A program made the position numbers and the translations under genes. From Conus ventricosus (lineage: Eukaryota; Mollusca; Gastropoda; Neogastropoda; Conidae): 64,000 bases of DNA. The notes beneath the pieces were generated by a model. The model was given only the letters and a program-made list of their open reading frames with translations. It made no database searches and was not told where the DNA came from. Position 1 is the first letter of the stretch; every line of letters starts with the position of its first letter. Below, piece by piece: positions 14,171-55,334 of the stretch. The DNA is taken from positions 18,086,181 to 18,150,180 of the forward strand of contig CM031622.1 of the NCBI GenBank assembly GCA_018398815.1. Direction: 5' to 3'.

Positions 14171-14201
<31 letters not shown>

Positions 14202-32118: not shown

Positions 32119-32305
32119 AGAGAATGTAAATATACGGGTTCACGACCACCCATCTTATTTTGCACGAAAACCCCCCTTTTCACAAACAAATCGCGTCCTT
32201 CTCATGCTAATTTTAGCCAAAATTAACACCTGTTTTACAACCAAAATTAACACGCAAAAACTGCAAAATTGACGTAATCGTTAATTTAAAATGGGGGCTT
32301 ACGTG
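32119..32305 (+). repeat. Left terminal inverted repeat of the Polinton, outer part
   Basis: It begins AGAGAATGTAAATATACGGG and matches the reverse complement of 55147-55329 with few differences. It is cut after ACGTG (32301-32305) by the LTR retrotransposon, and the repeat resumes at 39068. Confidence 0.9.
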
Positions 32306-34564
32306 TGTGACATGTCAATGACATTTGCGGTCAAAGGGAAGCAACTTCACATATTAGTTCCTGGAGTTAGCAACTAGACACAGGGGTGTTATTTCCCTTC
32401 CGGAAGTGACCCGGTTTTGTTTTCAACTTTCAGTTTGGGTCTAGTTAGGGCTCTTCGTTCTAGGCTTTAGTAGTTTATTATTAGTTTATTGGAGATATTG
32501 ATAGTAATAACAAATAATAGAGTAGTGTAGGGCTGTAAGTAAAGAGTAAGTACAAATATTTAAAACCTAAAAGGAAGCTACCATTCTGGGTGAGAGTTGC
32601 TGGCGATTGGCTCCTTCAAGAGAATTACATCACCGGTGCCAGACGCGTCTCCTGAAGTTTGGCGCGAGTCAGAAGACTCCTGATCCCCCTCAGATCAAGA
32701 CGCACATCCTATCCCAGTCTGTCTGCTGCCTCCAGGTTGGTGTTGAAATGACTTTTATTTTCGGCTAAGATGTGTTGAGTAGTTTTAGGGGTTTTTTTCT
32801 GGAACCAGCCAATGTTGAGGAAGGTAGTGCCAGAATTATCAGAATGATCAGGGTTGAGAACATTCCCGGCCTAGTAATTCTCCCGGACGCGATGTTTTCT
32901 TTTTGTGTGGTAAATTGTTTAGGCCTATTTACTTTTTGGTTGTGTACATTTGTCCTTGTCATAATAAATTTGAGCCTACTAAGAAGCTGGGTTTGTTTGT
33001 TTTGTGTTGCCTTGGGTGAGGCTACACAGTTTTCTTTGGTTTGGGGCTCTGGCATGTGTGGTGGAAACAGACGTTCAAACCGGGCCAGTCTAAGGATAAT
33101 CCCTGGAAAGATTGTCATGATAATGCTTTGAGATGGACCAAAGGATCTTTTTTCTATGTTGGACTGCAGAGAAGTTTGGGTGCAACTTGTTTGAAAGGTC
33201 TTGTGAAAAGGCCAGATTACCTCCGGCTCCCTTCCACTATCAGTCTACTGACTGATCTAAAAGAATTATTTGCCTGATATTTTGTTTGTTTATTTTTGTG
33301 TGTGTTGTGCGTTTCTTGTAGGTTTGGTTTTGAATGGTTCATGCTGTTTCTCTTCTGTGAGTTTATTTTTCCTCTTCCCTTCATTGTTTTTTTATTATGG
33401 GGTACTGCATGAGAGAAAGTGTGTGTAGATTGTTAGAGAAAGTGTATGTATATTGTTAAATGAAAATATTTGATCTCGGTTTTGCCTTGCTTGCTCACTG
33501 GAATTTATTGTGGGGTTTGTTATGTCTGTTCCCGCTGTGTTTCCTTTCATCTTTTCTCCAAGGAGCTAGATCAGTCCCTAGTTGTGGGATTAGGAGACTG
33601 AGACTAGATGACCCCTTCCTTTTTTATCTTCTCTCAACTTGGTGGAAACCTTGAAATGGGGTAAAGCCTGTTCGGGTTGATGAGGATGCATGGTTCTTGA
33701 GGTCCTTAGTTAAATGTGTGTGGGACACTGCCAAATAATAGGGCAAGTCCATGCAACAGAAGTTCACAGTTGGGCTGTTGTAGTCTTAAAACTGTAAGAG
33801 TTGAGATGTCACAGTCTGTGGTGTGAAGTGCTAAAGCCTGTAAAGGATAAGCACGTCAATGCTTCGTACGGAAGTTGGCTGTGTTTATGATGTTATGTAC
33901 ATGTCCATACCAAATTTCTTTACGTAAGGTGGGAAGTAACCAGGTATAAGCGGCTAGTGCAGTGATGTGAAAACCAATAGTGTGGTTTGAGTTCAAGATC
34001 CACCTGCGGCCTCAAGTTCCTAGCCCTCTATGACATCAATTGGTGAATAAACCAATGTCTTTTTTCTTTGTCACTTATTTTGTTGTATTTCATGTTATGT
34101 ATTTTGTTGTGTGTATCACTTATTGTTAGTACTCCCTTTTTTCTCACTTTATTTTTAGGGGACTTCTTGTTATGTCATTTTTTTATGTGTTTCACTTATG
34201 TTATTATTTTGATGAATGTTTGTCATGATCCTAAGACTATTATTAGAAAGCTAAGAATGTTTTTTTTGTCTTTTGTTTCAGATAGCTTGGTGGGTTTTTG
34301 TTTTAGGTAGGGAATCTTCTGAGGGGGAAAATTTGAAAGTTAAATTGGGCAAACATCATCTTCAGCTCGCCCATTTAGTTAGGGACGTAGGGTTCTTATC
34401 ATTGTATGTCCTCATCACCTATGCCCCCACAACAGCATTTGGGCAATAAAAGAACTGGAATTTGAAGCTCTCTCATGTGGTCATTGAACGAGAAGATGTA
34501 TAAGGGGGGAGTGACAAGCATTGAGACAGGGAGCAAGTGACACTCTTCCCCCAACTCTATAACA
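32306..34564 (+). repeat. 5' LTR of the gag-only element
   Basis: Nearly identical to 36824-39067. The differences I see are mostly single-base indels in homopolymers plus a few substitutions. The AATAAA-containing segment ACCAATGTC lies near 34050, and a GCAATAAAAGAACTGG word lies near 34443, likely the poly(A) signal region. No credible gene lies in it. Confidence 0.9.
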
Positions 34565-35291
34565 TTTGGCGCTGCGAGCAGGATGGTGATGGGGACAAAA
34601 AGAAGTTAAGAAAAAAATTTCAGACTAGATAAACCCACCGAGGCTTCACAGACGACCCGGGCCCCGACGACTGAGATGGGAGAAGCCATACGGAGGGCCG
34701 TGATGAACTTGGAGACCCTAGGGAGGACCAGACTGCTGGGCGAGGACCATCAGTCCAGGACAAGACGGCACACCGGCAGCCCAAGACGAGGCAGCACCAC
34801 CAGCCCATGGTGATACACTTTGGATTTGCATTAACAAAAACCCAACAAATGAATTCTCTGTGGAACATTGATCTTTGAAAAAAATTTTCCTTTTCATGAG
34901 CAGGAAAGATGTGTGCCTTGAGTGACATTTCCAGAGAAGGCAAATTTTGACCTTATGATTTTTTTTTTTTACTTCAATTGAAAATCCTATGTTCCCACAA
35001 CTTGTGGACAGATGTGTGAGCCCTTAGCGAGTGGGTACACTTCATTATTGGGGTGTTTTGTTTTCTCTAGCCCCATAGTGCTCTCAAAGTCGGGGAGCAG
35101 TTGGATGCATTTGGCTGTATGGTTTTTGGTTTGGTTGTTTTTGTTTGTTATGGAATTGTTCTTTTCCTTTTCCCTTTTATGAAAGTGTTGGGTATTTTTT
35201 TGGTGGGGTTGTTGTTTGTAACATTCCAAGTATTTGGGTGTTGTACCATTGGTAGTATATTTTTTTTTTAAAAGAAAAAGTAGTTGTCCAG
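34565..35291 (+). other. Leader of the gag-only element
   Basis: Primer-binding site TTTGGCGCTGCGAGCAGG, then T-rich untranslated leader. Open stretches on either strand have no recognisable product. Confidence 0.5.
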
Positions 35292-36290
35292 ATGTCGCAA
35301 GAGCGTGAAAGCACATCTGTATCCCCAATGATGCCTAACTTACAGGCAGAAGTTGGAAGATCCCCAGGACTAGGAGAGGGATGATGATTAGTGGTGGTCT
35401 TGGGGGGATGAGGAGCCACAGCCCAGGCCATATGAGTGGGTTAGTGGAGGAGGTCGAGAGCCTACGCAGGCAATTAGAGGAAATGAACTCTCGGCCGCAG
35501 AAGGTTGTGGTGACTGGGCCCAAACAAAAGAAAGTTAGAAAATTCCACGGGGAGCCAGAAGTAGATGGGGGGTACGTAGTGGAGGATTTTATAGAGGAGG
35601 TTAGGGTATTGCTAAGAGGGGAAGAAGATAGAGAGGAAAGGAGGCAGCTGGTTCTCAGCCATCTCGAGGGGGTGGCAAAAACGGAGGTGCGGTCATGTGG
35701 GAGACCACAGGATCAGCGGAAGCCATTTTGGAGACCCTGCAACATGCATTCGGGGACCGCCGTTCCCTCCCGGCCTTACTGGCCAACTTCGCCGAACGGA
35801 AACAAGGGGCAAGAGAGGGCATAAGAGAGTATGCCAATGACCTGTTTTCCCGACATAAGAAATTAATACAGAAGCAACGGAAAGAAGGAAAACAGTTGGT
35901 CAAAGAGGATGCATTGGTAGGTCAGTTTGTAGAAGGACTCCACGACAAGAGCCTGGCATTTGACCTGAAAAGGCAAGTAAAAAGGAGCATGCCATCTTTT
36001 GCCAGAAATTAGGGAAGAAGCTCTGGAGTGGGAGGAAATGAAGGGGGGACAGTTAGTAGCCGTATAGCAGGTATTGGGGCAGTAGGGAGTCAGCTGTCAG
36101 AGTTGGAGAGGGCCCAAGAGGAGCTGAGACAGGAAAACATGAGCTTGAGGAGAGAGTCAGAGGCCATGGGAAAGCTCCGACTCAGACGACTCGGACGATG
36201 AGGAGACATGGCCAAGGAGATCAAGAAGGGCGAATGCTGGGGTGCATTCAAACCCTTACAGATTACCTCAGGTGGTCAAACATTGATGTT
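35292..36290 (+). pseudogene. gag of the nested LTR element, joined to a pol-like tail
   Basis: It starts at ATG 35292 (MSQERESTSVSPMMPN). Frame changes at about 35380, 35690 and 36010 break it. The body has a Ty3/Gypsy gag look (FIEEVRVLLRGEEDREERRQ; ILETLQHAFGDRRSLPALLA; REYANDLFSRHKKLI), then a coiled-coil-like stretch (LERAQEELRQENMSLRRES, about 36100-36155). Immediately after, another frame gives an acidic run, SDSDDSDDEETWPRRSRR, and HSNPYRLPQ, which resembles the extreme C-terminus of Gypsy pol proteins. A deletion that fused mid-element gag to the pol end would explain the missing enzymes. Confidence 0.65.
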
Positions 36291-36813
36291 TTGTTGTTTC
36301 ATAGTTGATTTGTTTTTTTGTTGTCGTTGCATGCCAGTGGCTCAGGGTCTACAAGTGCTAGAGGTGTGCTTGTTTCATGATGTTTTCGGCTGTACAGCAG
36401 GAGGCCATAACAGTTTGTTTTTTTTGTGTGTCGTGTTTAATATTCCACAGAGAGAATGCTGATATAGGCATTCTGGCTTATTACTTTTCATGATCTGTTT
36501 CATTTTTCTAATACCAACACTTGGAAGAGGTGAAGTTGCATTTTCCAGGGATTTCTGGTAGCAACTATAACCTTGTGTTTTGGTAATGAGGACCTATGGT
36601 TTTGCGTTCTCTGAGTGCGGTTTGGGTGGTAGGTGAGTGTAGTCCCTGGTGAGTGGGATCTGTTTATGCAGTGTGCATTGGTATTGGGGTGTCATGCCGT
36701 AATCACCAGATTTGTTGGCTTGGTGTTCAGGGTGGTACAGACAGTTTGGTATTTATATGTTTGTTGTTTGGTTGGTGTAGGGTTGAGTGTCCTCAGGTGC
36801 CGACATTTCACAG
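36291..36813 (+). other. 3' untranslated part of the gag-only element
   Basis: Non-coding sequence between the gag/pol tail and the polypurine tract. Confidence 0.5.
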
Positions 36814-36823
36814 TCGGGGAGAG

Positions 36824-39067
36824 TGTGACATGTCAATGACATTTGCGGTCAAAGGAAGCAACTTCACATATTAGTTCCCGGAGTTAGCAACTAGACACAG
36901 GGGTGTTATTTCCCTTCCGGAAGTGACCCGGTTTGTTTTCAACTTTCAGTTTGGGTCTAGTTAGGGCTCTTCGTTCTAGCCTTTAGTAGTTTATTATTAG
37001 TTTATTGGAGATATTGATAGTAATAACAAATAATAGAGTAGTGTAGGGCTGTAAGTAAAGAGAAAAGTACAAAATATTTAAAACCTAAAAGGAAGCTACC
37101 ATTCTGGGTGAGAGTTGCTGGCGATTGGCTCCTTCAAGAGAATTACATCACCGGTGCCAGACGCGTCTCCTGAAGTTTGGCGCGAGTCAGAAGGCTCCTG
37201 ACCCCCCTCAGATCAAGACGCACATCCTATCCCAGTCTGTCTGCTGCCTCCAGGTTGGTGTTGAAATGACTTTTATTTTCGGCTAAGATGTGTTGAGTAG
37301 TTTAGGGTTTTGTTCTGGAACCAGCCAATGTTGAGGAAGGTAGTGCCAGAATTATCAGAATGATCAGGGTTGAGAACGTTCCCGGCCTAGTAATTCTCCC
37401 GGACGCGATGTTTTCTTTTTTGGTGGTAAATTGTTTATTTACTTTTTGGTTGTGTACATTTGTCCTTGTCATAATAAATTTGAGCCTACTAAGAAGCTGG
37501 GTTTTGTTTGTTTTGTGTTGCCTTGGGTGAGGCTACACAGTTTTCTTTGGTTTGGGGCTCTGGCATGTGTGGTGGAAACAGACGTTCAAACCGGGCCAGT
37601 CTAAGGATAATCCCTGGAAAGATTGTCATGATAATGCTTTGAGATGGACCAAAGGATCTATGTTGGACTGTAGAGAAGTTTGGGTGCAACTTGTTTGAAA
37701 GGTCTTGTGAAAAGGCCAGATTACCTCCCTTCCACTATCAGTCTACTGACTGATCTAAAAGAATTATTTGCCTGATATTTTGTTTGTTTATTTTTTGTGT
37801 GTGTGTGTGCGTTTCTTGTAGGTTGGTTTTGAATGGTTCATGCTGTTTCTCTTCTGTGAGTTTATTTTTCCTCTTCCTTCCATTGTTTTTTTATTATGGG
37901 GTACTGCATGAGAGAAAGTGTGTGTGTAGATTGTTAGAGAAAGTGTATGTAAAATTGATTAAATGAAAATATTTGATCTCGGTTTTGCCTTGCTTGCTCA
38001 CTGAAATTTATTGTGGGGTTTGTTATGTCTGTTCCTGCTGTGTTTCCTTTCCATCTTTTCTCCAAGGAGCTAGATCAGTCCCTAGTTGTGGGATTAGGAG
38101 ACTGAGACTAGATGACCCCTTCCTTTTATATCTTCTCTCAACTTGGTGGAAACTTTGAAATGGGGCAAAGCCTGTTCGGGGTTGATGAGGATGCATGGTT
38201 CTTGAGGTCCTTAGTTAAATGTGTGTGGGACACTGCCAATAATAGGGCAAGTCCATGCAACAGAAGTTCACAGTTGGGCTGTTGTAGTCTTAAAACTGTA
38301 AGAGTTGAGATGTCACAGTCTGTGGTGTGAAGTGCTAAAGCCTCTAAAGGATAAGCACGCCAATGCTTCGTACGGAAGTTGGCTGTGTTTATGATGTTTG
38401 TACTGTCCATACCAATATTCTTTACGTAAGGTGGGAAGTAACCAGGTATAAGCGGCTAGTGCAGTGATGTGAAAACCAATAGTGTGGTTTGAGTTCAAGA
38501 TCCACCTGCGGCCTCAAGTTCCTAGCCCTCTATGACATCAATTGGTGAATAAACCAATGTCTTTTTTCTTTGTCACTTATTTTGTTGTATTTCATGTTAT
38601 GTATTTTGTTGTGTGTATCACTTATTGTTAGTACTCCCTTTTTTCTCACTTTTATTTTTTAGGGGACTTCTTGTTGTGTCATTTTTTTATGTGTTTCACT
38701 TATGTTATTATTTTGATGAATGTTGTCATGATCCTAAGACTATTATTAGAAAGCTAAGAATGTTTTTTTTTGTCTTTTGTTTCAGATAGCTCGGTGGGTT
38801 TTTGTTTTAGGTAGGGAATCTTCTGAGGGGAAAATTTGAAAATTAATTGGGCAAACATCATCTTCAGCTCGCCCATTTAGTTAGGGACGTAGGGTTCTTA
38901 TCATTGTATGTCCCTCATCACCTATGCCCCCACAACAGCATTTGGGCAATAAAAGAACTGGAATTTGAAGCTCTCTCATGTGGTCATTGAACGAGAGATG
39001 TATAAGGGGGGAGTGACAAGCATTGAGACAGGGAGCAAGTGACACCCTTCCCCCCCACTCTATAACA
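36824..39067 (+). repeat. 3' LTR of the gag-only element
   Basis: Starts TGTGACATGTCAATGAC directly after the purine tract and ends TATAACA, followed by the CGTG target duplication. Confidence 0.9.
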
Positions 39068-39116
39068 CGTGCAAAATAAGATAGGGTGATCGTGAACCCG
39101 TATATTTACATTCTCT
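39068..39116 (+). repeat. Left terminal inverted repeat of the Polinton, inner arm
   Basis: CGTGCAAAATAAGATAGGGT, continuing to ACATTCTCT, is close to the reverse complement of the outer 49 bp starting at 32119. The left terminal repeat thus ends as it begins, in inverted orientation. The equivalent on the right side is 55097-55146. Confidence 0.9.
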
Positions 39117-39252
39117 AAAGGGGCATAAAAATTAAGGGTTTACAGAATTAATTAATATTGTTGTGAAGTGCTTCTTCCTTGCGCTGAACCCTGAGCGATC
39201 TGATGCGATCAAAGCTAAGTGAATTCTCGTTGTTTTATTCGTTTATACTTCA

Positions 39253-39310
39253 CCTGACGAAGACCTAAGAGGTCGAAACGCGTTGTGTTTTGTCTTGTGA
39301 CTCGTTTGTC
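39253..39310 (+). other. Dispersed stem-loop motif, hammerhead-like, copy 3 (in Polinton 5' region)
   Basis: CTGACGA (39254-39260), A, GACC-TAAGA-GGTC (39262-39274), GAAA (39275-39278), CG. This is the best preserved of the three copies. It lies about 120 bp upstream of the first Polinton ORF, in what would be its leader or promoter. Confidence 0.5.
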
Positions 39311-39392
39311 CACGTTTCTCTGGGCGGTTTCGCTAACATTTATTTAAGATTTGTTAATATTTTAATTGTTGTTTTTAATCTGGTTTAAAAAA

Positions 39393-39723
39393 ATGAAGGA
39401 CGAAGTAGCTACAGAGCTTATTAATATACTTTACGAGTTGGATTGGAGAGGGAGGGCTGATAAAGATCAGTTAAAGAGCAGGTTTGAAGAATTAATTACT
39501 GATCTTTTTGAGCGTATAAATATGCGAGAAAGCGTAAAGCAGGCTGTCAGTAAAATACCAGTATTCTTGGCCCCAACCGGTTATAAAGTTGTTTGCCATT
39601 TTAGTTGATAATATAGCTTCTGAAGATGTTAATCTGACTGTTTCTACCAGCCCTGAAGGAGTAGCTATTCACTTTAATGAAGATCAGGTTTTACGATTAG
39701 AAAAGACAATGAATAATAGCTGA
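39393..39723 (+). CDS. Small Polinton ORF 1, related to the N-terminus of the polymerase ORF
   Basis: ATG at 39393 opens 71 residues (MKDEVATELINILYELDW) to a stop at 39606. The sequence stays open in another frame to 39723, so one indel may split a ~110-residue protein. The segment MRESVKQAVSKIPVFL parallels VQESVTHAISKIPESL in the polymerase ORF starting at 40099, and in both a beta-rich stretch follows. I do not recognise a function. It may be a duplicated N-terminal domain kept as a separate small protein. Confidence 0.5.
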
Positions 39724-39767
39724 ATTTACAATTATTATTTTTTTATTTAAATTTTTAGATTTTATAA

Positions 39768-40031
39768 ATGGCTGCCGAACTCAGTGAATCTGATTTAAAG
39801 AATTGTAATGAACTATTTGACGAAACAATGAAAGTATTAAACATTGATTTTAGTGAATTTGGTTTTGAGAATGATGTAAACAATATAATAAAAGATCATA
39901 GTGAACTATTTAACGAAGCAATTAAAGTGATGAACATTGACTGTAGTGATTCAGAAAAAGCTAAAATATTAGCAGGTGTTATTGTAAGGTTAACGTGTCT
40001 TGAAGTGTTGCAACGCTTGGGTGAAGAATAA
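39768..40031 (+). CDS. Small Polinton ORF 2, acidic, internally duplicated
   Basis: An intact 87-residue frame from ATG 39768. It is acidic and helical-looking, with no membrane span or signal peptide. Two ~30-residue repeats are visible: ELFDETMKVLNIDFSEF and ELFNEAIKVMNIDCSDS. It lies between ORF 1 and the polymerase on the same strand, with AT-rich gaps of 44 and 67 bp, so a shared early transcription unit is plausible. The function is unknown. Confidence 0.6.
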   Translation: MAAELSESDLKNCNELFDETMKVLNIDFSEFGFENDVNNIIKDHSELFNEAIKVMNIDCSDSEKAKILAGVIVRLTCLEVLQRLGEE

Positions 40032-41311
40032 AAGCGTGTTTTACTTACTTTATTTACATTTATTTTTTTTAATTTACATAAATATTGTGGCTTTAAAAAT
40101 GACGGCCACAAGTAAATTTGAGGATGGAAAACTATATACGATGGAAGAAATATTTGATAGTGACAAACAATTAAGCAATACGTTTAGTGAAGTAAACATG
40201 GATATTATTAACCCTACAAACGTTCAGGAAAGCGTGACACATGCTATCTCTAAAATCCCAGAGTCGCTTCAACGCGAGCCGCCAGTAAAAGTGTTGTTAA
40301 CCATTCTGATTGATTATGTAACACCTGATGGCAGTAACATAGAAGTCTGGGTTTCAACTAAACAGAAAGAAGTTATTAGCTATCGCGACCTTAATTCTGA
40401 CTGGGCTGATTACATGCTTACACAGTTTAACCATGCAAGTGAGGAGGCTAAGTTAAGGGGTTCTGGCTGGTCTGAAGGGACAGTCCTTGAAATCAAATTG
40501 AAACAAAGTTTTATCCTATAGTTGGCAATTCTTACCTTCCTCTTCCAAGAGAGTTAGAGTTAAAACGAGCAGTCTTAAACATACATAATTCTGACAACAT
40601 GTGTTTTATGTGGTGTGTTTTAGCGCATTTACATCCTGTTAAAAATCATGCAGAGTTTCCAATTATGAACAATATAAGCAAGAGCTGAACTTTGAGAACA
40701 TAACCTTTCCAGTAAGTATAGAAAGTATATTTCAGTTCGAAGAGCAAAACAAACCAATCGCCGTAAACGTATACAAATGGTCTGTAGAAGACAATCTAGT
40801 GCCTCTAAGGATTTCTCCAAACGCCCTACTTTAGGCGATTCACTTAACAAGCATGTAGACTTGATCCTGTTTGCAGATAGTACAAAGAGCCACTATGTAT
40901 TAATCAGAACAATAAGCAGACTGTTAGCCTATACGTCAAAGGATAAATCTAAACAAGAGCTTTGTAGAAGGTGCCTAATCAGAATCCCAACTATAGAAGC
41001 ATCTGCCAGTCATAAGAAACATTGTAAAAGTTTTGTAGACTGTGAAACCAAACTCCTCACGCCTAAACCAGGGTCTAAAGTTAGTTTTAAGAATGTACAC
41101 AAAATGCAGATGAGTCCATACGTAGTTTATGCTGACTTTGAATCAATCTTGCCACAATACTACGGCCCTCAACAAGAACAAAAAACAACCTTATTAACCC
41201 ACCATCAGATCTGTTCTTATGCGTTTATTGTTGTTAGGTCGGATGGCGCACACACGGCCCCCGAGATTTACAGAGGCCCCAATGCAGTTAGTAGATTTTT
41301 ACAACACATGA

Positions 41312-41342
41312 AACTATACTCCCCGCAACAAGTTAAGGAACG
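41312..41342 (+). repeat. 31-bp arm of an inverted repeat flanking the Tc1 insertion
   Basis: AACTATACTCCCCGCAACAA and the next 11 bases are the reverse complement of 42887-42917 with one mismatch. They lie within polymerase coding sequence, just outside the presumed transposon ends. Confidence 0.95.
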
Positions 41343-41366
41343 CCCTACGTTTTTTGTATCTTCTTA

Positions 41367-42867: not shown

Positions 42868-42886
42868 TAACAGCAATTTCTGTAAA

Positions 42887-42917
42887 CGTTCCTTAACTTG
42901 TTGCGGGGAGTGTAGTT
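42887..42917 (-). repeat. 31-bp inverted partner of 41312-41342
   Basis: CGTTCCTTAACTTGTTGCGG and the next 11 bases, the second arm. Without the transposon the arms would lie about 44 bp apart and could fold into a hairpin within the polymerase gene. Confidence 0.95.
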
Positions 42918-43626
42918 CGTAATTACTACTCCAACCAACTAAATCTTTCAGGCATTGTTATGACTCCTGAAGACCAAGAACGCTATGACTCATCTACGCT
43001 CTGTTGGATATGCAACAGAGAATTATTAGGCGACACAGTGAGAGACCACGATCACATTACTGGCAAATTCAGAGGAGCCGCACACAATAGTTGTAATCTT
43101 CAGCTTAAGGTTGACCCCAAAAAATGGAAACTGCCTATCTTCTTTCATAACTTACGAGGCTACGATTCTCATTTCATCATGCAAGCAGTGACTTCTGAAT
43201 ATAAGAGGGTTACCTGCATTGCACAGTCTTCAGAAAAGTACATGACTTTTACTCTTGACTTTATCCTTTTATGACTCTGCCCAACATCTGATGGCAAGTT
43301 TGGATAAATTAGCGGGATCGCTACAAGACTTTCCAATCACTAAACAATACTTTGACCCATCTTTAGTGCGTAAAGGTGTTTACCCCTATGAATACATGAA
43401 CTCGTGGGATAGGTTTGATGAAGACTCGCTTCCTCCTAAAGGCGCTTTCTTTTCTAGTCTTAGAGGCAAAGACATAACTGACTCTGAATATGAATACGCT
43501 CAAAAAGCCTGGACAGAATTACACTGCCAAACAATGGGCGACTACCACGATCAATACTTGATGGCTGACGTATGTTTATTAGCAGACGTCTTTCAGAATT
43601 ACAGATCTACATGCATAAAACATTAA

Positions 43627-46600
43627 AACTTAGATCATACATTACATCTTGCCCCAGGCCTTTCTTGGGTTGTTTTTCCTTAAGTCTACAAACACCCAAG
43701 ATTGATTTAAATATCGGGTTACCCCATTTCAGATAAATTGAAGCCCGGCCTGGGGGAGGTATTAGCGGGGCCTCACTTTTTTTAAATGCAAGCTAAAAAA
43801 CAAAGTATTTGGGACGATAGGGACCCCACAAAAAAACCGTTAAACCCTAATGTACTTGACGCCAAAAATCTGAAAGGAGGGGCTATGAGTCACCCGTTTT
43901 CCCAATGGGGAAATTTTTTACAATGTTTAAAAGGGGCCTCATGATGTCACTACTGTTTTAGGAATGTTTTTCACGCTTTAAACCTAATAACCCCATGGGA
44001 AATAATCTTAGAATTTGACTTTGAGTATCTTATAAAACTACACGACCCCAAAAAGTTACCCCTAGCCGGAAAGAAAAAATTAAAGATGACCCCACAAAAC
44101 CCTTCCAAAAAACTTTCCCTAATCTTCAACAAAAACTAAAAAAAGTCTGTCTTTTACAGACTTTTTGAGTTTTCCCTAAAGCTTTGGGTGAAAAAAAAAG
44201 CTTTCACAGAAAAAATTATTGTGATCAAGAGCCTTTTTAAAGGACCTTTACATCAGGAAAAATCTGATCTTGGGAAACCAAGCATGAGGGCTTCAAAAAA
44301 AAGGATTTTTAAAAGTTAATGAAAAACAGTTTTTTGGGTTTTAAAAACCATGAAGAACCCCCCCCAAACGCAAAATGTAAAATTTTTTGAAAAAGAAAAA
44401 CAAGCAATTAAGTGGTCTCTAAACCTAAAAATAAAGGGGATTTAGAAGATTTAACGCCCAGCCGGTTGGATTTTGAGGGAAAAAAAAGGTTTTTAAAGTT
44501 GGACAACCCGGTGTTTATCGGTTTTTCCCTTTATTGATTTTGTAAAATTTTTTTAAAGTTAGAATTTTGTAGGCCTATTTTAAAACCCACGTCCCCGAGA
44601 AGGCCCTTTTTTACCAGACGCTGATATTTTTATTTAGAGCCCCACGGGGAAGACTTTTAAAAGACTTAGAAACTGAGGTACCCAAAGGGAAAACAAATTG
44701 GGGGGGTACGACACTTTTGGATAACCCAAAGACGCCCCCTTTAATTCAACTGAAAAACAAAAAAGAAATTGGAAAAAGATGAAGGAAAAATTAATTTCCC
44801 CCAGTTATCAAAAAAAAATAGTTGGTTTGCGGTCAAAGATTTTATAGCTTTGGCAGCCAGATTCTGTAAGAAAAAAGCAAAGGGCAAAAGGTAAAGAAGT
44901 TTTTCAAAAAAATTTTAATCACGACAACTAAACCCCAAGTCCTTTGAAAAAAGTTTTTTCATACCCCAAATTTTTATTGCGCTTTTCTTCATAAAGGAAA
45001 ACACAACTGCTTTTTAAAAAAAAATTTCCATTTAACCTCTAACAATAACAAGAGAATTACGTCAACCCTGGGGTTTCCATATGCTTTTGGGAAATTGGAG
45101 AATTTTTAAAAGTTTAATTTGGGACTAATTGGTTTGGTACTTAACTTAAAAAACCTAACAAAGTACTTATTAAAAACCCTAATTTAGTACTTACTTAAAA
45201 AATTTTAGTACTTTCTTTAACTTATAATTTACTTTTACTTCCCCTTGAAAATTTATTTCCCATTTTAACTTAAAAATTATTTTCCTTAACAAACTTAACT
45301 TTTTTTATTAGTTTTTTTTTTTAAATTTCCCTTTAAAAAAACTTTTCCCTTTAAAAAAAGGGGGTCTACAGGGGGGCTGTACTTTTTTTGAAAAGCGGTT
45401 CTTCTTCTTTTACGTGGGCTTTTGTAATTTGTTGCTAGGTATGGGGGTTAGGTATTTGAAATGCTAAAAAACCACCAAAAACAGCAGTTTCCCAAATAAA
45501 AAAATGTTACACTTATGTTTGACTGCGTTTTTGTGTTGTTTTTAAATTGTGTTGTTGGGGGCGGCGGTTGTATTATATTAAAAAATTTTTGTTTTGCTGT
45601 GGGTTTGCTTTTTGCGGTTCTGTTCCATTCAGCTGGGTTTACCCCGCCTCAACACGTCCAGGACTTTTAAACTTAGAAACACCTAACCTTGTGGTCCATT
45701 CACTTGTGGTACATTCCTTGTGGTAATTTTTCTCCTCCCGGACGCCCTGCGGCGTTTCTCGCTCATTTTTTTTTTGGAATAAATTTAATATGATAAATTT
45801 TTAAATTATGATTTAAAAGTTTTTAAATTCCCATATAAAGGGGGCATAAAATGCCCCAAAATCTGTAATACTTTTCAATGAAAGGTTTCTAGGGACTTTT
45901 TTTTTAAAAACCGGGTTTCTTGTTTTAAGTCATATTTTAAATTTCTTTGATAAAGGCCCATCTTATTTTACTAACTTGCTTTAGGTTTAATCATTGTTGC
46001 CCCCGTTTAAACCCATTTTTACCCTAACTGCGTTCGTACCTAGCGTAGTTACTTCTAAGTCTGATGTGGGCCCTTGGGAAATTGTTCGAATTTAAGTTCA
46101 TTTCCCTAAATATGTTTATTTTTTCCCACACGCAGCTGAGAGTATAATTTTCTTTAGGGCATTGGTTGTGAGTGCCTACGGAGTGGGCTGCTTGTTCACA
46201 CTTTAATGTTGGTCACCCCCCCCTTTTTAAAACAAAAAAAAAATAATAAATATTTTTAAAACCATGATTTTTAACGTTGGTTAATTATGCATTCCCTATT
46301 GTTGGGTTATAGGGGTTTAACCCTTGCAAAAATGTTTTTTGGGGAAAAAAAAACCGCCCCCTGGAAAGTAGAAGATTTCCCAAAAACTATTTGCAACCTT
46401 ATTTTTACCCCTACCCACAAAAAGATTACTGATTAAAAAGCCCCTAGCCCAGTCTTTGTATTATAAATTATTTTAATTATTTTTTAGTTAATAAAAGAGG
46501 GAGTAAAAAAAAAGATTATCAATACGATTTCCCTTTCTCCCTGTAATTAGCGGTCTTGAATAGGTATAGTGGTTAGAAAAATCAGGGTTTAAAATGAAAC

Positions 46601-49600
46601 CGGCCCGCCCTGGGAAAGGGTTTAAAGAGGGGATGTTTTTTAGGTTAATTTTGGAATTCCTGCAGGGTTTTGCTTTCCCCCAAAAGTTTCCCCTTGGTTA
46701 CACAGGGGTTACCCCAGAAAATTTTAAAAGCATGAAAAAATTAAATTCAAAAGAAAAAAATTTTAAAAAAAGATGTCGGGATTGGCCCTGATGGTGGGAG
46801 GAGCTTTTTTAAATTTGCTTTGGCTTTTCTGGAAGAAAATTTATGTTTAGTAAATTGCGGTTTCCCGGATAAAGAGGGGAAAGAACATAAAAAGGCAAGG
46901 AAAGATTTTACCCAAAGGCAAGAGGCTTTTGGGAAAAAAGGCAAAATTCCTCCTTAGACTTTATTAAAAAAAATTTAAAGGGAAAAAGGGGGTCATGCAA
47001 AAGCCCCTTTACAGACGTTGATGACGCAATGACGGGAGTTTTTATTTAGCGACGGGAAAAGAAGTTTCTAACACGCCACCCCCAGCCCTGTTGACTTTTT
47101 GAACCTTTGAGGAACAAAAGGGGACGGGAGGACATTTTTTATTGCAGTTGGCATGACCTAAATTTCTTCTTGTTGCTCATTTCTTGTGAAAAATTTTTAA
47201 AAATGTTTTAAAAATGGAAAAAAAATATATTTTTCTCCTAAAGGGTTTTGGGAAAAGGAAAAGGGACGCTTTTGAAAAATGGTAAGCTGCTAGGGGTGTT
47301 TTAAAACAAAAATGCAAAAGGTTGGTTTTCAAAAAAAAAATTTGGGCCCAAATATTTTCTCCCTTTGCCCCAAAAAAAATTAATAAGCCCTTAGTTTTGT
47401 TTTTTTTCATTTCCCAAAATGAACCCCAAATGGACTTGTGTATTTCCCACATGAAAAAAGTTTTTAAAAAAAAAAAATTTTAAGTTGGCTCTGCCCGTTT
47501 TTGGGACAGGGGTTTTCAAGATACACGCGCTAAACCCTTTTAAAACCGAAAAAAAAGCTAAATGCTGTGGCTGTGGCTTTAAAAAAATATACTGAGGGGC
47601 CCATTAAGTACCCAAGGGGATGATTCAAGGTTGTTTGATGGAAAAGTTTTAAAAGGGTTTCGGAAAACCAAAATTTTTTTAAAACATCAAGTTAAGTTAA
47701 AAAGGGGGACCCCGGGGAACCCATCGACCCCACAACCCTTAGTAGAAAACTTTTAATAAGAATCTGCTGGAACCCCGTTTTCCTATAAATACACAGAAAA
47801 ATTATGGTTAGAGAATGAAAACACAAAAGGGTTTTTAGGAGATTCCCAGCGTTTTTCGGGCCATAAACAATGAAAAATTTTTAAGGGAACGGGCCCTTTC
47901 CCCAAACCCGAAAAACCCCAATTTAAAATTTTTAAAAAAAAAAATTGGGAAATTTGAAAGGGTACAGGGGATCAAAATCTTGCCTTTTGGGCCCCTAAAA
48001 GAAAGAACTTGTTTGCTCCTGGGAGGCAAAAGGTGTTGTTAAAATTTAAACAGCCACACCCCCCTTTTGGGAGCGTAGATTTTATATGGTTAAAAGGGAA
48101 TTATAAAAACACCCCCTTCCCGTATATTTTTTAAGAAAAAATTTTTCTGCTCCCGGGCCCCCCTAAAAATTCCTTTGTTCATGAAGAGCTGAAATTTGGG
48201 TCCCCCCAAAAAACACAGTGGAGTTAAAAAAAAATATATTTATTTTTTCCCAAAAATTTTTTTTTGTTTAAAAATTTTTTTTTTTCTTATTTTTTGGGTT
48301 TTAACTGATCATGTGTTTGTTTTTTTAATGTTCTGTTTTAAATTTATCAGTGTTTTCCCTGTTGTGAAGTTTAAAAATCGTCTCCCCTCCTTTTGAAGTT
48401 CAATTTTTTTTTTGTCTGTAATCCCCACCATCGGCCATAAGCTCTGAAAAAATTTTTTGGGCCGTTTAAAGTTTTCATCCTGTTTAAAGATTTTTCTTAT
48501 TTTAAACTTAATGAACAAAATTTTGCTGATGTAGGGCTACAATGGGGAGTGTGCTTTTTAATTTTTGGAGTTAATTTTTTTTTAAAAAAGCATTTTAAAC
48601 ATAGACTGGCGCCTAAACCTTTAAAACCCAAAGGCCCCCCCTAAAGCTAAAGGGACTGGCGCCCCCGCCCCCGTAGCTAAAAAAGAACCTAGGGCTCAGC
48701 CCCTTACGTAGCTACAGCTGTGAGCCAAATAATTAATAAGAAAGGTATTTAAACTTTTGCATAAATTTTTTTCTGTAACCCCATACCCTTTTTAAGTCGT
48801 TTTATTTCCCTTTTTAAGTTCAGTTATTTTTTTTACCTAAAATGTTGAACCTCATTTTTTTTAAAAGAATTTTTTTTAAAATTAATCTTTTTTCAAATCT
48901 TCTTTCCCTTTTTAATTTTCTGGCAGCAAATTTTATTAACAAAGTAAAACGCAAATAAAATCAAAAATAAATTTTTGAAAATAAAAATCGTGTACTGTTA
49001 GTTTGGTTTTGTTTTAACCCTCACAGTAAACCCTTTTAGATGATACAAGAGTGTTTATTTCATTCCCTTTTTGTAATTGCAATACTTTAGCTTAAGAGGG
49101 GCTCCAAGTTTTCGCCCTTTTTTTTGTATACCTCCCAATTAGCGTTTTGGTCTTTGGGAAACTAGGATCGCCCTCCTGGGGGGTAATAAATTAAACGAAA
49201 AATCCTCGTCATTTGCCCAGGTAGTGTCCGTGCGTTTGGGGGAAAAATTTTAAGTAAAAAGTGTCATCCCCCCCTTTGTAAGGATTCTTTTCTGTGATAT
49301 ATTTTAGAAACCCCGGGGGGAGGTTTTTTCAATCTGTTTTTTCTGTTGTGTTCCTGGGGAAATAGGCTAAAAGAATGGGTTCCCCGCATTTAAGGGTTTT
49401 CTAAAAAATTTTTTTTTTTTTATCAAAAATATACATTTGGGCTTCGTAGTTCAAAATTTAAATTAAGCAAAATTTTAGGAAGCAACGCCCCGCAAATTTT
49501 CTCTTTTATGGGAAATTTGATTTTAGTTTGCCAAAATCGTTTGCCCTTAAATTTCTTTCTCTTCTAGGGTTTTGGATATTGCTGTCGTTCTTTTTCTTCA

Positions 49601-52600
49601 ATTTTGTTCGTTTTTTAAACCCATATCTGTGTATCAAAAACCATAAACCCTTTCCTTCACCCCCATGATCAAACTGGGGTTTTGTTGGGTAGGTCTTTTA
49701 GGGTTCCCGCAACGCATTTTTGGGGCTAGCTGGCTTTTGATTCTGGCCCCCGAGAATTTTTTTTTAATTTTAAAATTTTATAAACAAAAATTTTTTTTAA
49801 AACAATCAATTTAAAAAAACAAAAATTTTTAATAAACAAAAGTATTGAAAAGGGGGGGCGTCCGTAAGCATAGCTTTTGTGTGCTTAGATTTTTTAATGC
49901 TCATTTTTTTTTTTTTAGCTATCTTTTTTCCCCTTTTTATATAATTTTCCTTAAAAAATTCTTCAAAATATCTTTGTCCCTTTGGTAAAATAAAAACAAT
50001 GATTTTAACTGATTTTAAAATCTTTTAAGACACATTTTATTTTTGAGTTTAGCCAACAGAAAAATAAGGGTAGCCCCTAAAGGCTAGCTTTGACCGAGCT
50101 TTTTTTTTTTTTAAAAATGTTTTCGGGTTTAGTGGGAAAAAGTCTCAATTAAAAAACAGTGTTTCAGTTTCCCCCAAATAGTCTATAGTAATGGTTTTTT
50201 TTTAAACCCCGCTCGGGGTTTTGTAGGATCAAACCCAAAAAAAATTTTTCTCGTCTGTCCAAAAAAAACTTCCTTTTTTTTTTGTAAGACTTTTTTGTGC
50301 TTTAATGGTTGTGCCCCGAATATAAAAATGTACTGTAAGGAAACCTGTATATTGTTTGTAAAAATAAGTACGAAAAACAGTTTTTCCCCCAAACCCGTAA
50401 TCCGCAGGAAGAGAACAGTGCGGTTTTTTGGAGAAAATTCAAAATATCCATCTTTTTTAATTTGGTTATTTCTTCTGCATTTTAAAAAAGCCCGTTTTTT
50501 AGCCTGTTTTTTTCATGTTTAGTGCGCATCAAAACCCTAAAAAACATTTCCTTTTTTATTGGGGGTTTCGTTGCCCTTTTTTGGGGAATATTTTTTTATA
50601 CCTCTTGCCCTACCCCTTTTCCCCCTTCAAACAATCTGTTGTCAAATGTTTGGGTCTAAATCCAACCACAGCCGATTTGGTTATTAAGTTTGTCTTCGAG
50701 TCTTACATAATAAAGGGGAAGTTTTTTTCATACACGATCAAATGCGGATCTCTTTTTTCCCACCCCAGCGGAAAAAAAACTTTCTTTTTTCATCCCCCGG
50801 TTGATGAGGTAAAAAATCCACGACCTGAATACAAAAGTCCCCCCTTGATTTATTGCAAAGTCAACCCTTTTCAATTTTTGGTTTTTAAAAAATTTGATTT
50901 TTCTTTTGAAAAAGGGGTTGGTTTCCTTTTAGTAAAAAAAGAACAAAATTTTTTTTTAAAGACTTCAGAGATGATTTTGATGTTTGTTCCCGAGAGTGTT
51001 CGCTTGTTTCTATTTTCTTTTAAAGGAGTGTTTTAAAAACCCCTTTATAATAAATAAGTTTTTTCTTTTTTTACCGGGTTAAAATTGTTCTGGCCAGTTT
51101 AAGGGGTTTGTAACAAATCAAAATCAAGAGAAATGTCCTAAATGTGTTTTGCCCCTTCCCCGGGTTTAGAAAGGGAAAGACCCGAAACGCTAAGATTAAA
51201 AGTCAGTTCATAAGTAAAATTTTTCTTTTAGTGCACCCTTTGGGAATATGGCATATGGTCTTTAACGCTCAAAAACTAGGGGGGATGCAGAATCTGTTGC
51301 AAATGCTTCTGCTATGCCTCATTTTTTAACATCATCCTTTTTTCCTCCCCTTTTTAAACCTGTGCTTGAGGGGCCCTTTGGGCTTTGTTTTCCCTGTAAA
51401 TTTCTCTTTTCCCTTTTTTTTTTAGGCAGCCATTTGGGTCAGAATGAGGGGGAAAAAAAGTCTGCCTCGCTTTTAAAGACTTCTCTGCCCCCCAGTTTCC
51501 TTGCTATTGTTTAACAATTTCCCCGCCCCAAAAATTTGCCCAAAAAGTAGCATTAGGATTTTGTGATTTAATATCCTTTTTTAATTGATAGTTTAGCAGT
51601 GGGCCCGGCGTTTAAAAATCGCCAGCCCAAAGATCATGGAATTTCTATTAAAATTTGTCCGGGCTGAACTGTTGATGGAGTTTTTTCACTAATTATGGTT
51701 TTTCCCCTTTTACCCTTTTCGGGGATACGGTTTTTTTCTTCTTTGGATGGGTCGAGGTCACCCCCGTTTGAGTTCATTTTTTATAAAACCCAAAAAAAAT
51801 ATAAATAAAAAATGGGGGGATGAAGATTTTTACGCGATTGGGGTCTGGTTTAAAGAAGATTTAAACGAAATGGGCCCCTTTATTGCAAGAAAAAAATTGA
51901 AGGGGGGTTCTTTTCTCCTAGACAACGCCAAGAACTATTGCGGGAAAGAAAAATTTAATTTATTCTATAGAAACATAGGACGGGGTTTCCCGGGTGCTTG
52001 GCCAAAGATTTTTTTAGGAAAATGGTGGGCATTTGTATGGGAAGAAATGGGGAGGAGGCCCTTGGGAAAAACTACTTTAACGCAAAAAACCCCAAAAAAG
52101 TTTTTTAAAAAAAGCCCAATTTGGCGAAAACTCCCTATTGCTAAAGGCCCGAACAATTAAACCTTTTAGGTTGAACCGAAGCCGTTGTGTTTACAAAAAA
52201 TTTTTGGGGAAGAGTTTCCCCAACCCCCAAACTAAAATAAAAAAATACCTCTAAAAATTTAAAAAAAGCAGATGAACTAATAGCAGAAATTGAAAAGAGT
52301 TTAAGTGGGGGACACGTTAAAAACCCAAATTTGGGGATTTTCCCTTGCCCCTTTCGTGAAATTTCCCCGGGGCTTTAAAGCTGCTTGGGACAAAAGGGGG
52401 GAAATAAAAACAATTTGGGAAACATGGGAGTAGATAGAAAGTAGAAAAAGAAAAAAAATAAATGGCTAATGCAGTTTATAACCCCAATTTTGGGCGAGAA
52501 GAAAAGGCTAGAATATGCAGAAAAAAAACGAAATTTTAAAGATAAAAAAGGGCAGCCCGGTTAGAAAAATGCTGTTCTAAACAGAGCGCAGTAGCATTTA

Positions 52601-55096
52601 CAAAAAAAGCAGAATTAAAGAAACTATAAACAAAATACTTTATGGAAAAAAATACGGGGGCTGAAAGATTAAGGGGTGTTCAGAAAAAACAGGGGGTTAA
52701 AAAGGTTTGCATATTAAAAGTTTGGGTTTTTCTATTTTTCCCCTGTTTATGCTTTTTTAAAAAGGGGGTTGGCCCCAAAAGGGCCGTAGCACCCCCAAAT
52801 AACCTTTTTTAAAAAATTGGAAATTTGAAAACAATTACATCATTAGCAAACTTATTTTTAAAAAAAAAAAAATTTTGCGCCCAAAACGCTTGATTTCTCT
52901 GCCTGGCATAAATGGGGGAGTGTTGTTAGTTTTTGGGGTTTTTTCTACTATAGGAAGTTACTGGTTATTGGCTGAATCTGTGGACGTTGGGGTTTTAGCG
53001 GGTGGATTAATTTTTAGTAAAATAAAAATTGGCCCAAACCCGTTTAAAAATTAAAAAAAACCCCAACAAGGGCGGGCTTTTTGCTAGGGGTGACTGTTGT
53101 GCGAGGGGATCAAAGGCGGTGTGCTTTTTGGTTCTGAACTGCTTTCTGGGGGGGGGGGGGGGGGGGGGGGGGGCTTTTTTTTATAACGGGGTCGCCTTTT
53201 TTCAGAGGGTAGGGTTCCCTTTTTTTTTTAAAGGATGGAGCAAAGGGCCCCTTTTGTTTTTTATTGTGCCCTAAGTTTTGGCGTTTTCCCGCTATGGGGT
53301 TTTTATGTTATTAAAAACTGGATCATGCCAATCTGTAGCCCCAAGGTCGAAGGGAAAATGTATAATTCCCTGCCCCCAACAAAATCAACTTTTACCTAGG
53401 GTTTTGCAAAAACCGTCTTTGGGCCTTTGTATGCTGGCAGGCAAAAATTTAACAAACCCCGGGGTTTTAAAAGATCTTTAAAAATTTCTGAAATTTTTTT
53501 TTAGAAACAAAAGCCGGGTAGATTGTTTTCTATGTAGATTAGTCTGTGCTTGTGTCCCCAATAAAAACCCAAAAGTATGTCCCCTATGGAGTCCCTTGGT
53601 TTTGCAATCCCGGATTGTTAGGCCTTCACTTTCATCTAAGAAAATGTTGTCCCGGCATCAGGGTGTTTTTGTTCTATGGGGTCCCTTTGGACTCGTTTGT
53701 CTGGTTTAAAAGAAGTGTGGCCGGCCAGTGTATAATTTTTAAATTTTCTACCCTTCGCCCCCCACAAAAACAATGTGCCTAAACCCCTTTAAATTTCGGG
53801 GTTAAAAATTTTTCTAAAATTTAGTTGGGGGTTTAATGTTAATTCATTTCAAAAATTTTTTCATTTGCATTTTGTGTCCCTTAGGGGGTTTTTAAAGGAT
53901 TAAAAGGGGTTGTCGTTAAAGGGGGGGGGGCACTTGTAGTTCAGTAGTATTGTCTTTATGGTAATTTAAATGAAAGTTATTTTACTGACCTTACCCAAAA
54001 GGATTGGGAGGGTTTTAAATGGTTTGCATATGAAACACCGCAGCCAGTAGTTGCGCAGTAAATTTTGGGAAAATTTAACTGATTTGGAAAAAAAACCAAA
54101 AGGGGGGATGCCCCTGCTGGGGTGGCACTCTGTCACTTTTATTGGGGGGTTTAAATATTTTGTTGGTGGGTTTACAAGTTGGGTTGGAAAACCCTTTGAT
54201 CCCTCTACTGAAAGGTTTTTAAATGTGAAAAATCCCAAAAATTTGGGGGTTTTAAAAAGTCTACTTTGTAAGTGGCACTTTCGTTATATTTTAAAAGGTT
54301 CCTTTTTTTTAAAAAGTTTTTTTTAAATAAATTATAAAAAAGATGTACATCTATATAACCCAAACAAAACGGGGGGTGTGTTTTAAGTTTCCAATTTTTC
54401 AAATTTGGGGCGGGAGTTGTGGATTGCCCTAAAGAAATTGGGGTTTAAGTTAAGTGGGTTAACAATTTTTGGGGAAAAAACTCAAAAACTTGGGTCAAAT
54501 TAGTAACGAGGTGGGCAATAAAAAAACTATGTAAAAATTCCTGATGGTTTTCAACTTTTGCTTTTTTAAAAGAAAGTACTTAGCGAATTTGGCATATTGT
54601 TAAAAATTTAAAGAAAACAAACCCCAGAATTACTATACATTTCCCCCTAGAAAGGAAAAAAGAGAGTACAATTTTCCTAAAGGCCCAGCTAAAAATTTTG
54701 GTTTCACAGTTTTTTCAGAGCTTATTTGATTTAGTTTCAAGAGAAAATGTTTTTAATTTTTAAGGTAATAAACCTGATTTTTGTGAACCCCAAAAATTGT
54801 TTTTTCATTTTCAAAAAGTTAAAAAAAAAGTTTTAAATTTTTTTGAGGCTATCCGTCTACGTTCTTTAAAAGGGGTTTTTCCATAACTAGGGGGGGGTTT
54901 TTCCCATTTTTTCGATTAAACTCAGTTGGAAATAAACAGTGAATTTAAAGATTAATTATTGGGCCTATAAATTTATTTGATGTTTAAAAAAAACTAACCC
55001 AAAAAAAGGGAGAGCCAGTTGTTTGTTTTTGATTTTTTAATTTGGGGTGGAAGTAAAAAGGGTACTGTAAAACCCCTTTAAATTTTTATGCCCTGG
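43627..55096. other. Corrupted Polinton interior (probable low-accuracy assembly)
   Basis: From just after the clean polymerase frame ending at 43626, the sequence becomes dense in AAAA, TTTT, GGG and CCC runs with stops in all frames. Polymerase motifs are still traceable to about 45115. Clean sequence returns exactly at the right terminal repeat (55097). No frame after 45115 can be trusted. I looked for integrase, ATPase, protease and capsid signatures and found none I could defend. A short basic minus-strand start (MSEKRRRASGRR, from 45766) and open stretches at 50515-51036 and 51747-52160 could be residues of real genes. Confidence 0.7.
53148..53173 (+). repeat. 26-base G homopolymer
   Basis: An uninterrupted G run inside the corrupted block, probably an artefact. 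Confidence 0.9.
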
Positions 55097-55329
55097 AGAG
55101 AATGTAAATATACGGGTTCACGATCACCAAATCTTATCTTGCACGTAAGACCCCATTTTAAAGTAACGATTACGTCAATTTTTGCAGTTTTTGCGTGTTA
55201 ATTTTGGTTGTAAAACAGGTGTTAATTTTGGCTAAAATTAGCATGAGAAGGACGCGATTTGTTTGTGAAAAGGGAGGTTTTCGTGCAAAATAAGATGGGT
55301 GGTCGTGAACCCGTATATTTACATTCTCT
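55097..55329 (-). repeat. Right terminal inverted repeat of the Polinton (233 bp)
   Basis: The reverse complement of the left repeat once the LTR insertion is removed. It starts AGAGAATGTAAATATACGGG and ends with the inverse of the same sequence, so both edges carry the ~49-bp arms. The arms are not identical: the inner one reads ACGATCACC where the outer reads ACGACCACC, and the left repeat shows the same inner/outer difference. Confidence 0.9.
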
Positions 55330-55334
55330 AATGA

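What the first reader, a model, noticed from the sequence alone, without database searches (positions are those of the whole stretch)
32119..55329. Three-level nested Polinton: LTR element in its left terminal repeat, Tc1 in its polymerase
The AATGA flanks, matched terminal repeats and a family B polymerase define one element of about 23.2 kb. An LTR retrotransposon with its own CGTG duplication cuts the left terminal repeat, and a Tc1 element with TA flanks cuts the polymerase. Removing both leaves about 15 kb, a normal Polinton size. The order of events can be read directly, and the 5-bp flank is one base shorter than the usual 6-bp Polinton duplication.
Basis: partly seen in the sequence, partly recalled or inferred. 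Interest (0 to 1): 0.75.

Follow-up and report, generated by a model that had tools for sequence, protein, structure and literature searches.

The report
Nested Polinton with palindromic terminal repeats
A virus-like jumping element in what is probably a cone-snail genome was hit later by two other jumping elements; the nesting is ordinary, but its ends are long palindromes whose two halves appear to change together, a possible clue to how such elements copy themselves.

Summary
32119-55329 is one Polinton/Maverick insertion with a 5-bp AATGA duplication. A gag-only LTR element (32306-39067, CGTG) sits in its left terminal repeat and a Tc1 element (41317-42912, TA) in its family-B polymerase. 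Both inserts are at the same level, so the nesting is two-level and their mutual order is unknown. A 5-bp duplication is within the 5-6 bp reported for Mavericks. Two things were missed. (1) 43652-55091, half the element, is consensus noise (inflated runs, bases replaced by a neighbour); a clean twin locus and arbitrary stretches of the genome show this, so gene content there cannot be read. (2) Each terminal arm is a 233-bp imperfect palindrome. In 40 copies all 14 cells changed on both sides of the terminal 24-bp stem still pair (0 of 500 shuffles reach that number). I read this, tentatively, as a fold-back (hairpin) stage; my paper searches found no report of it. Integrase and capsid genes could not be tested.

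The parts
32114..32118 (.). left copy of the Polinton target duplication, AATGA
   Evidence: host flank single-copy in the assembly
32119..32305 (+). outer 187 bp of the left terminal arm
   Evidence: terminal 27-mer 4 times in window, 0 expected
32302..32305 (.). left CGTG duplication of the LTR element
32306..34564 (+). 5' LTR (TG...CA), 2259 bp
   Evidence: 37 other long match rows at 91-97%, the 3' LTR among them (38 of 319 candidates scored)
34565..36823 (+). internal region of a gag-only, non-autonomous LTR element; no reverse transcriptase seen
   Evidence: weak PNMA/gag-like match, E 0.025, below cut-off; crude motif look
36824..39067 (+). 3' LTR, 2244 bp; K2P 0.012 to the 5' LTR
39068..39071 (.). 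right CGTG duplication of the LTR element
39072..39116 (+). inner 45 bp of the left arm; holds the inverted copy of the terminus
   Evidence: (I20)
39117..39147 (+). about 30 bp by which the Polinton terminal repeat seems to run on beyond the 233-bp arm
   Evidence: 25 identical bases, 4 gap columns; the homopolymer-compressed version did not exceed its control; a motif of this stretch lies beside 39 of 40 arms
39994..43626 (+). family-B polymerase in four separate open pieces (39994-40521, 40696-41316, 42912-43274, 43246-43626), frameshifted and cut by Tc1
41317..42912 (+). Tc1 element; TA at 41315-41316 and 42913-42914; 25-bp terminal repeats; transposase frame 41623-42711 with HTH_Tnp_Tc3_2 and DDE_3; spacing 34 or 35 depending on which of two adjacent D is meant
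43652..55091 (.). consensus-noise tract (runs inflated, bases replaced by a neighbour); covers the rest of the Polinton interior
55097..55329 (+). right terminal arm, 233 bp; its two ends form a 63-bp imperfect palindrome (56 matches, 5 mismatches, 3 gap columns)
55330..55334 (.). right copy of the AATGA duplication

Best explanation
A roughly 15-kb Polinton inserted into host DNA, making a 5-bp duplication (shown; that a retrovirus-like integrase did it is inferred from the family). Later, in an order that cannot be read, an LTR element inserted in its left terminal repeat and a Tc1 element in its polymerase gene (shown). Half of the interior is not legible because the assembly consensus there is of raw-read quality (shown by comparison with clean copies and a clean twin locus). 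The family's arms are 233-bp imperfect palindromes whose terminal halves change together (shown statistically, mainly at two stem pairs). I infer that during protein-primed strand-displacement copying the single strand folds back on itself at each end, so that the two halves are kept alike by repair of the hairpin, by selection for it, or by both.
For: One element: terminal repeats plus AATGA on both sides; 39 of 40 scored arms share a short motif on the inner side, 38 of them in four longer types, 25 of the window's own type with the window counted by eye; C9076 holds two arms, a CATGG duplication and matches to all four polymerase pieces. Family: 534 exact 19-mer termini against 0 for the reversed control; among the first 100 places listed, 78 arms and 21 neighbours within 40 kb against 0.37 expected, 9 of the 21 at 13.6-19.5 kb. 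Polymerase; 39 further places match 43700-44700 at 72-75% (40 of 2536 candidates scored). Nested inserts. Noise. Palindrome: DNA fold z -11.3; 14 of 14 cells changed on both sides stay paired, 0 of 500 shuffles reach that number and slid partners lose it; stem pairs 7 and 10 are each other's best partner column, pair 10 being the strongest of 1533 background column pairs; arms sharing the pair-10 change are not nearest relatives elsewhere in the arm.
Against: No integrase, capsid, protease or ATPase was identified: 22 separate frames of the window and its copies, four of them polymerase pieces, scanned against Pfam, gave no such family. Of four arm pairs examined, only two show an exact 5-bp duplication; one needs a 2-base shift of the right end, one is 4 of 5. 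Covariation rests mainly on two stem pairs; pairs 16-19 are not significant alone, and 4 of the 14 cells are one block in L091. In the whole-arm consensus fold only 6 of 80 pairs have compensatory changes and the covariation term is slight, -0.17. The 40 arms are the best matches to one query, not a random sample. No flip-flop of the arm centre relative to the interior was seen, which a parvovirus-like resolution would predict.
Confidence: 0.9

Rival explanations
1. Two short unlinked inverted-repeat (MITE-like) elements happen to flank an unrelated polymerase gene.
For: Each arm is itself bounded by inverted repeats and so looks like a small element. One of 40 arms, L076, lacks the usual inner motif and L059 shares only the short part. 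36 of the 78 listed arms, by my count of the 21 pairs, have a neighbour within 40 kb, so many have none listed (other arms may lack the exact 19-mer).
Against: Neither arm alone has a target duplication, but the outermost flanks match; 39 of 40 arms continue into a shared inner motif; arms are paired far above chance; C9076 has both ends and the polymerase.
Confidence: 0.03
2. The noisy tract is biological: a slippage-type hypermutation or decay confined to the Polinton.
For: In the window and in L097 the tract begins at the inner edge of the arm; substitutions that copy a neighbour resemble transient misalignment (recalled).
Against: The twin locus has 99.8% identical arm and flank but a clean interior. 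Over the same last 1.2 kb each noisy copy is 77-78% identical to the clean one but only 69% to the other, so the errors are largely independent. 2 of 19 arbitrary 10-kb stretches with sequence hold such tracts, with no match to the element. The probable source assembly is PacBio CLR with wtdbg2 and no polishing step described.
Confidence: 0.03
3. The arm palindrome is only a relic, for example an old inverted duplication of the end, with no hairpin stage; the covariation reflects shared ancestry.
For: Related sequences can exceed shuffles without structure (tool note on the count of structure pairs); only a few stem pairs vary; the whole-arm covariation term is slight.
Against: Background association between columns is low and the stem partners rank first; the arms sharing the pair-10 change are not close relatives in the arm centre; a block of four changed bases is complementary on both sides in L091.
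Confidence: 0.45

Closest known systems
Polinton/Maverick elements
   Same: PF03175-type polymerase, long terminal inverted repeats, AG...CT ends, size near 15 kb, many copies
   Different: 5-bp rather than 6-bp duplication in the two exact cases; palindromic arms; integrase and capsid not legible. Vertebrate intact Mavericks: 12.7-24.6 kb, repeats 46-1447 bp, 6-bp duplications (PMC8097293, passages).
Endogenous virophages interrupted by Ngaro retrotransposons
   Same: Virus-like DNA element cut by retrotransposons, including in terminal repeats (4 of 20 sites) and pPolB (1 of 20) (PMC8547959, passages)
   Different: There the inserts are tyrosine-recombinase Ngaro elements in a protist; here an LTR element and a Tc1.
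Parvovirus-type hairpin ends and Bidnaviridae
   Same: Palindromic ends at a genome thought to copy through a single strand
   Different: Bidnaviruses, which are thought to have taken their polymerase and repeats from Polintons, are stated not to form such hairpins (PMC4061559, passages); no flip-flop is seen here.
Tc1/mariner, DD34E
   Same: TA duplication, transposase domains, spacing 34 if the second of two adjacent D is catalytic (assignment recalled)
   Different: Nothing unusual noted.

Membership tests
Polinton/Maverick | protein-primed type family-B polymerase | tested here: met
   piece 43246-43626 has a PF03175-bearing relative at 2.6e-43; Endonuclease_7 match above cut-off in the piece before it; the direct Pfam match of the piece itself is weak, E 0.064, below cut-off
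Polinton/Maverick | long terminal inverted repeats | tested here: met
   233-bp arms, probably plus about 30 bp
Polinton/Maverick | 5-6 bp target duplication | tested here: met
   AATGA here; CATGG at C9076; two other pairs imperfect. A strict 6-bp rule is not met.
Polinton/Maverick | retrovirus-like integrase | tested here: inconclusive
   no match in separate frames, but the region is noise
Polinton/Maverick | capsid, ATPase and protease genes | tested here: inconclusive
   same reason
Polinton/Maverick | length about 12-25 kb | tested here: met
   14849 bp by subtraction, inflated by noise; C9 relative 14.8 kb
LTR retrotransposon | paired LTRs with TG...CA ends and a short duplication | tested here: met
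LTR retrotransposon | reverse transcriptase and integrase | tested here: not met
   2.26-kb interior; no RT in the two frames scanned or in a crude motif look; so filed as non-autonomous; superfamily not assigned
Tc1/mariner | TA duplication, inverted repeats, DDE transposase | tested here: met
Parvovirus-type hairpin telomere | flip and flop orientations of the terminal palindrome | tested here: not met
   39 of 40 arms have one orientation relative to the inner motif; L076 has no recognisable inner motif

The most novel reading that the evidence does not exclude
In this Polinton family each terminal repeat is a hairpin-forming palindrome whose two halves evolve in concert, so the element passes through a fold-back single-stranded stage; Polinton ends would then be an intermediate between protein-capped linear ends and parvovirus-like hairpin ends.
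Probability: 0.35. Interest if true: 0.6.

Novelty: new variant of a known kind. Interest (0 to 1): 0.42.

Why it matters
The nested insertion itself is ordinary. Two results matter more. First, 6770 of 147546 legible bases in a small arbitrary sample of this assembly are noise of the same type (2 tracts in 19 stretches with sequence; summed), so claims about broken genes or decay in it need checking against reads. Second, I know of no experimentally worked-out Polinton replication cycle (recall, not a search); a terminal palindrome that co-varies across dozens of copies would be sequence evidence for a fold-back stage and makes that testable by counting.

Tried and rejected
Flip-flop of the arm centre (hairpin resolution as in parvoviruses): suspected from three loci, then seen to be my own misreading of orientation; 39 of 40 arms agree. 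Viral-contig scans with three polymerase pieces: two found no relative, one found 55 loci that match a short stretch around an endonuclease-VII-like motif and were not used. A protein search with piece 40696-41367 gave 2 relatives among 42 candidates, neither informative. Pfam on noisy frames: nothing useful. Homopolymer-compressed comparison to extend the terminal repeat: score 28 against a control mean of 26 and maximum of 41, so no support. Dating: terminal-repeat divergence, 6 substitutions in about 232 bases (entered as 235), and LTR divergence, 27 of 2228, do not differ significantly (p 0.12), and 22 of 30 LTR gap events are in homopolymers, so I give no dates. Empty site: only the two halves of this locus plus 5 short weak matches. 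An earlier argument for independent noise compared stretches of different lengths, and a more distant clean copy, L119, is also only 66-67% identical to the noisy tract; I replaced it with a like-for-like comparison.

Not settled: why two noisy tracts start at the arm edge; why L076 lacks the inner motif; why arms of one type continue into at least four types of inner sequence.
Full report
What is there. The window is G000:C28:18086181-18150180 of a 3.52-Gb genome in 12740 contigs. The finding's coordinates are right. The element runs from 32119 to 55329 between AATGA copies at 32114-32118 and 55330-55334. Its ends are inverted repeats: 150 bases at 99% outside, continuing on both sides of the LTR insertion site.

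The LTR insert. The LTRs are 32306-34564 and 36824-39067, start TG, end CA, and are flanked by CGTG. They differ at 27 of 2228 aligned bases with 30 gap events, 22 of them in homopolymers. The 2.26-kb interior shows a weak gag-like match and no reverse transcriptase. I call it non-autonomous and leave its superfamily open. A genome search with the 5' LTR scored 38 of 319 candidates; besides itself it lists 37 long matches at 91-97%, the 3' LTR among them, and 7 short pieces at 87-98%.

The Tc1 insert. 41317-42912 with TA on both sides, 25 matching terminal bases, an open frame at 41623-42711 with HTH_Tnp_Tc3_2 and DDE_3 above their cut-offs, and a spacing of 34 or 35 residues to the last catalytic residue (catalytic residues assigned from memory). 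It lies between two polymerase pieces that both match another copy at C9076.

The polymerase. Four separate open pieces remain, so it is frameshifted as well as cut. Piece 43246-43626 finds 264 relatives among 273 candidates; of the 120 listed, 5 carry PF03175, the best one included, and the two with a species name are from the dog whelk Nucella lapillus, 64 and 77% identity. The direct Pfam hit of that piece is weak (E 0.064); the preceding piece passes the cut-off for Endonuclease_7. The genome has 54 other PF03175 places over the cut-off (91 of 3955 candidates scored; 0 of 14 control genomes), and 39 DNA relatives of 43700-44700 at 72-75% (40 of 2536 scored).

One element or two? I examined the 40 scored arm copies including this one (40 of 4736 candidates scored). 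In 39 the arm is followed on the inner side by a shared short motif, in some copies with a few changes. Beyond it 38 fall into four longer types (25, 6, 4 and 3 copies, the window's own noisy copy assigned by eye), L059 shares only the short part, and L076 shares nothing. An exact 19-base terminus occurs 266 plus 268 times, and the reversed control 0 times. In the first 100 places listed, all on contigs C1-C9, there are 78 arms, 22 of them with both exact copies 212-234 bases apart. 21 neighbouring pairs lie within 40 kb where 0.37 are expected; 9 of these are 13.6-19.5 kb apart, the others range from 0.6 to 33 kb. C9076 has both arms, an exact CATGG duplication and matches to all four polymerase pieces; that copy is itself mildly noisy (mean run 1.58-1.77). 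C9 has both arms 14.8 kb apart, with one end matching the window's left part and the other its right. So the arms are element ends.

Duplication length. Of four arm pairs, two are exact at 5 bp and fail at the sixth (window, C9076); C9 gives CAGGG only if its right end has two extra bases; C33 agrees at 4 of 5. A passage in PMC8547959 gives 5-6 bp for mavirus and Mavericks; PMC8097293 uses 6 bp for vertebrate Mavericks (passages).

Order of events. Host, then Polinton, then LTR and Tc1 in unknown order. This is two-level nesting. Terminal-repeat divergence is 6 substitutions in about 232 bases and LTR divergence 27 of 2228; the difference is not significant (p 0.12, computed with 235).

The noisy tract. 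From 43652 to 55091 the mean run length per kilobase is 1.85-2.02 against 1.26-1.55 elsewhere in the window; the segment scores 851 nats over the background model and the next best outside it 11. Against four clean copies, 37 of 39, 33 of 35, 33 of 33 and 36 of 39 substitutions give a base equal to its neighbour; between clean copies the numbers are 2 of 9, 0 of 6, 4 of 12, 4 of 7, 3 of 5, 5 of 10, and 6 of 9 for L096. At C17 a twin of one insertion is held: arm and 3 kb of flank agree at 3203 of 3209 aligned bases with 24 gap columns on each side, yet one interior is clean and the other noisy, with 134 of 141 substitutions copying a neighbour. Over the same last 1.2 kb the window's noisy tract is 77.3% and L097's 78.0% identical to the clean L096, but 69.1% to each other, so the errors are largely independent. 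Of 20 arbitrary 10-kb stretches, one was all N; 2 of the other 19 hold such tracts, without similarity to this element. The tract is therefore sequencing or consensus noise. In this window and at C17 it starts at the arm's inner edge, which I cannot explain.

Probable source. Contig C1 is 184,223,000 bases long. The paper on the cone snail Lautoconus ventricosus reports a largest scaffold of 184.22 Mb, 35 pseudochromosomes, 19,399 scaffolds and 3.59 Gb, from PacBio CLR reads (passages), assembled with wtdbg2; [quoted passage not shown] the word polish does not occur). The held genome has fewer contigs and is slightly smaller, so the identity is an inference from the length of C1. It fits the noise well. 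The paper's main text does not mention Polintons or Mavericks.

The palindromic arm. Each 233-bp arm begins and ends with inverted copies of the terminus: 56 matches, 5 mismatches and 3 gap columns over about 63 bases in this window. As a single DNA strand it folds at -57.8 kcal/mol, z -11.3 against 200 shuffles, as an inverted repeat must. In 40 aligned arms the outer 24 pairs hold 97.3% standard pairs; 6 pairs and 14 cells are changed on both sides; 0 of 500 shuffles reach either number, and sliding the partner by 1-3 columns reduces the cells to 1-4. All 14 doubly changed cells remain complementary; 4 of them are one block in L091. Against this, the whole-arm consensus fold has compensatory changes in only 6 of 80 pairs and a slight covariation term of -0.17. 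As a control for relatedness I compared all variable columns: stem pair 10 is the strongest association among 1533 background pairs, pair 7 is in the top 0.3%, and in both cases the partners are each other's best match; pairs 16-19 are not significant alone. Dropping the second arm of the same element or twin leaves 36 arms and the same result. Arms sharing the pair-10 change rank 22nd to 29th among each other's neighbours in the arm centre, so it is not one close lineage.

How it may work. [quoted passage not shown] In such a strand each arm could fold back. Repair of mismatches in the folded arm, or selection for folding, would keep the two halves alike. Shown: palindrome and covariation. 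Inferred: the hairpin stage. Against a parvovirus-type cycle: no flip-flop orientation, and bidnaviruses are stated not to form hairpins. A technical worry remains: inverted misalignment in consensus calling might homogenise the halves; long reads make this unlikely but I did not test it. Full-text searches for Polinton or Maverick with hairpin, palindromic, fold-back, snapback and related terms listed no title or abstract that reports such arms; passages of two listed papers were read, and PMC8502044 on adintoviruses is not held.

Verdict. As a nested insertion it is ordinary. The arm palindrome is the part worth following.

Noticed in passing
G000:C17:68708001-68742500 (L096, L097, L098): The same Polinton insertion and flank occur twice, inverted, about 24 kb apart, with an N stretch between; one copy clean, one noisy. 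Probably an assembly duplication of one locus.
   Followed up: partly
L100:4747-9531 and L109:1-1985: Noise tracts like the one in the window, in arbitrary stretches without similarity to the element.
   Followed up: partly
window 11882-16887, minus strand: Open frames resembling endonuclease and reverse transcriptase of non-LTR retrotransposons, two neighbouring sets (read by eye).
   Followed up: no
window 7310-9331 (minus) and 20814-24394 (plus): Fragments resembling LTR-retrotransposon polyprotein and integrase (read by eye), one with an 8-copy 46-49-bp tandem repeat inside at 8679-9072.
   Followed up: no
window 59014-60601: Adjacent 59-bp and 45-bp tandem arrays; the frame at 58894-59217 reads X over part of its length, so there is an N run.
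   Followed up: no
L076 (G000:C16:80027400-80028400): The only one of 40 arms without the usual inner motif; possibly a solo or rearranged arm.
   Followed up: no
L057, L058, L060 and others: Arms of one kind continue into at least four types of inner sequence, so several related element types may share the same ends.
   Followed up: no
G000, 54 places: Family-B polymerase matches over the Pfam cut-off; 46 of the 54 have no stop inside the match, so the genome holds other, better preserved Polinton-like elements.
   Followed up: no
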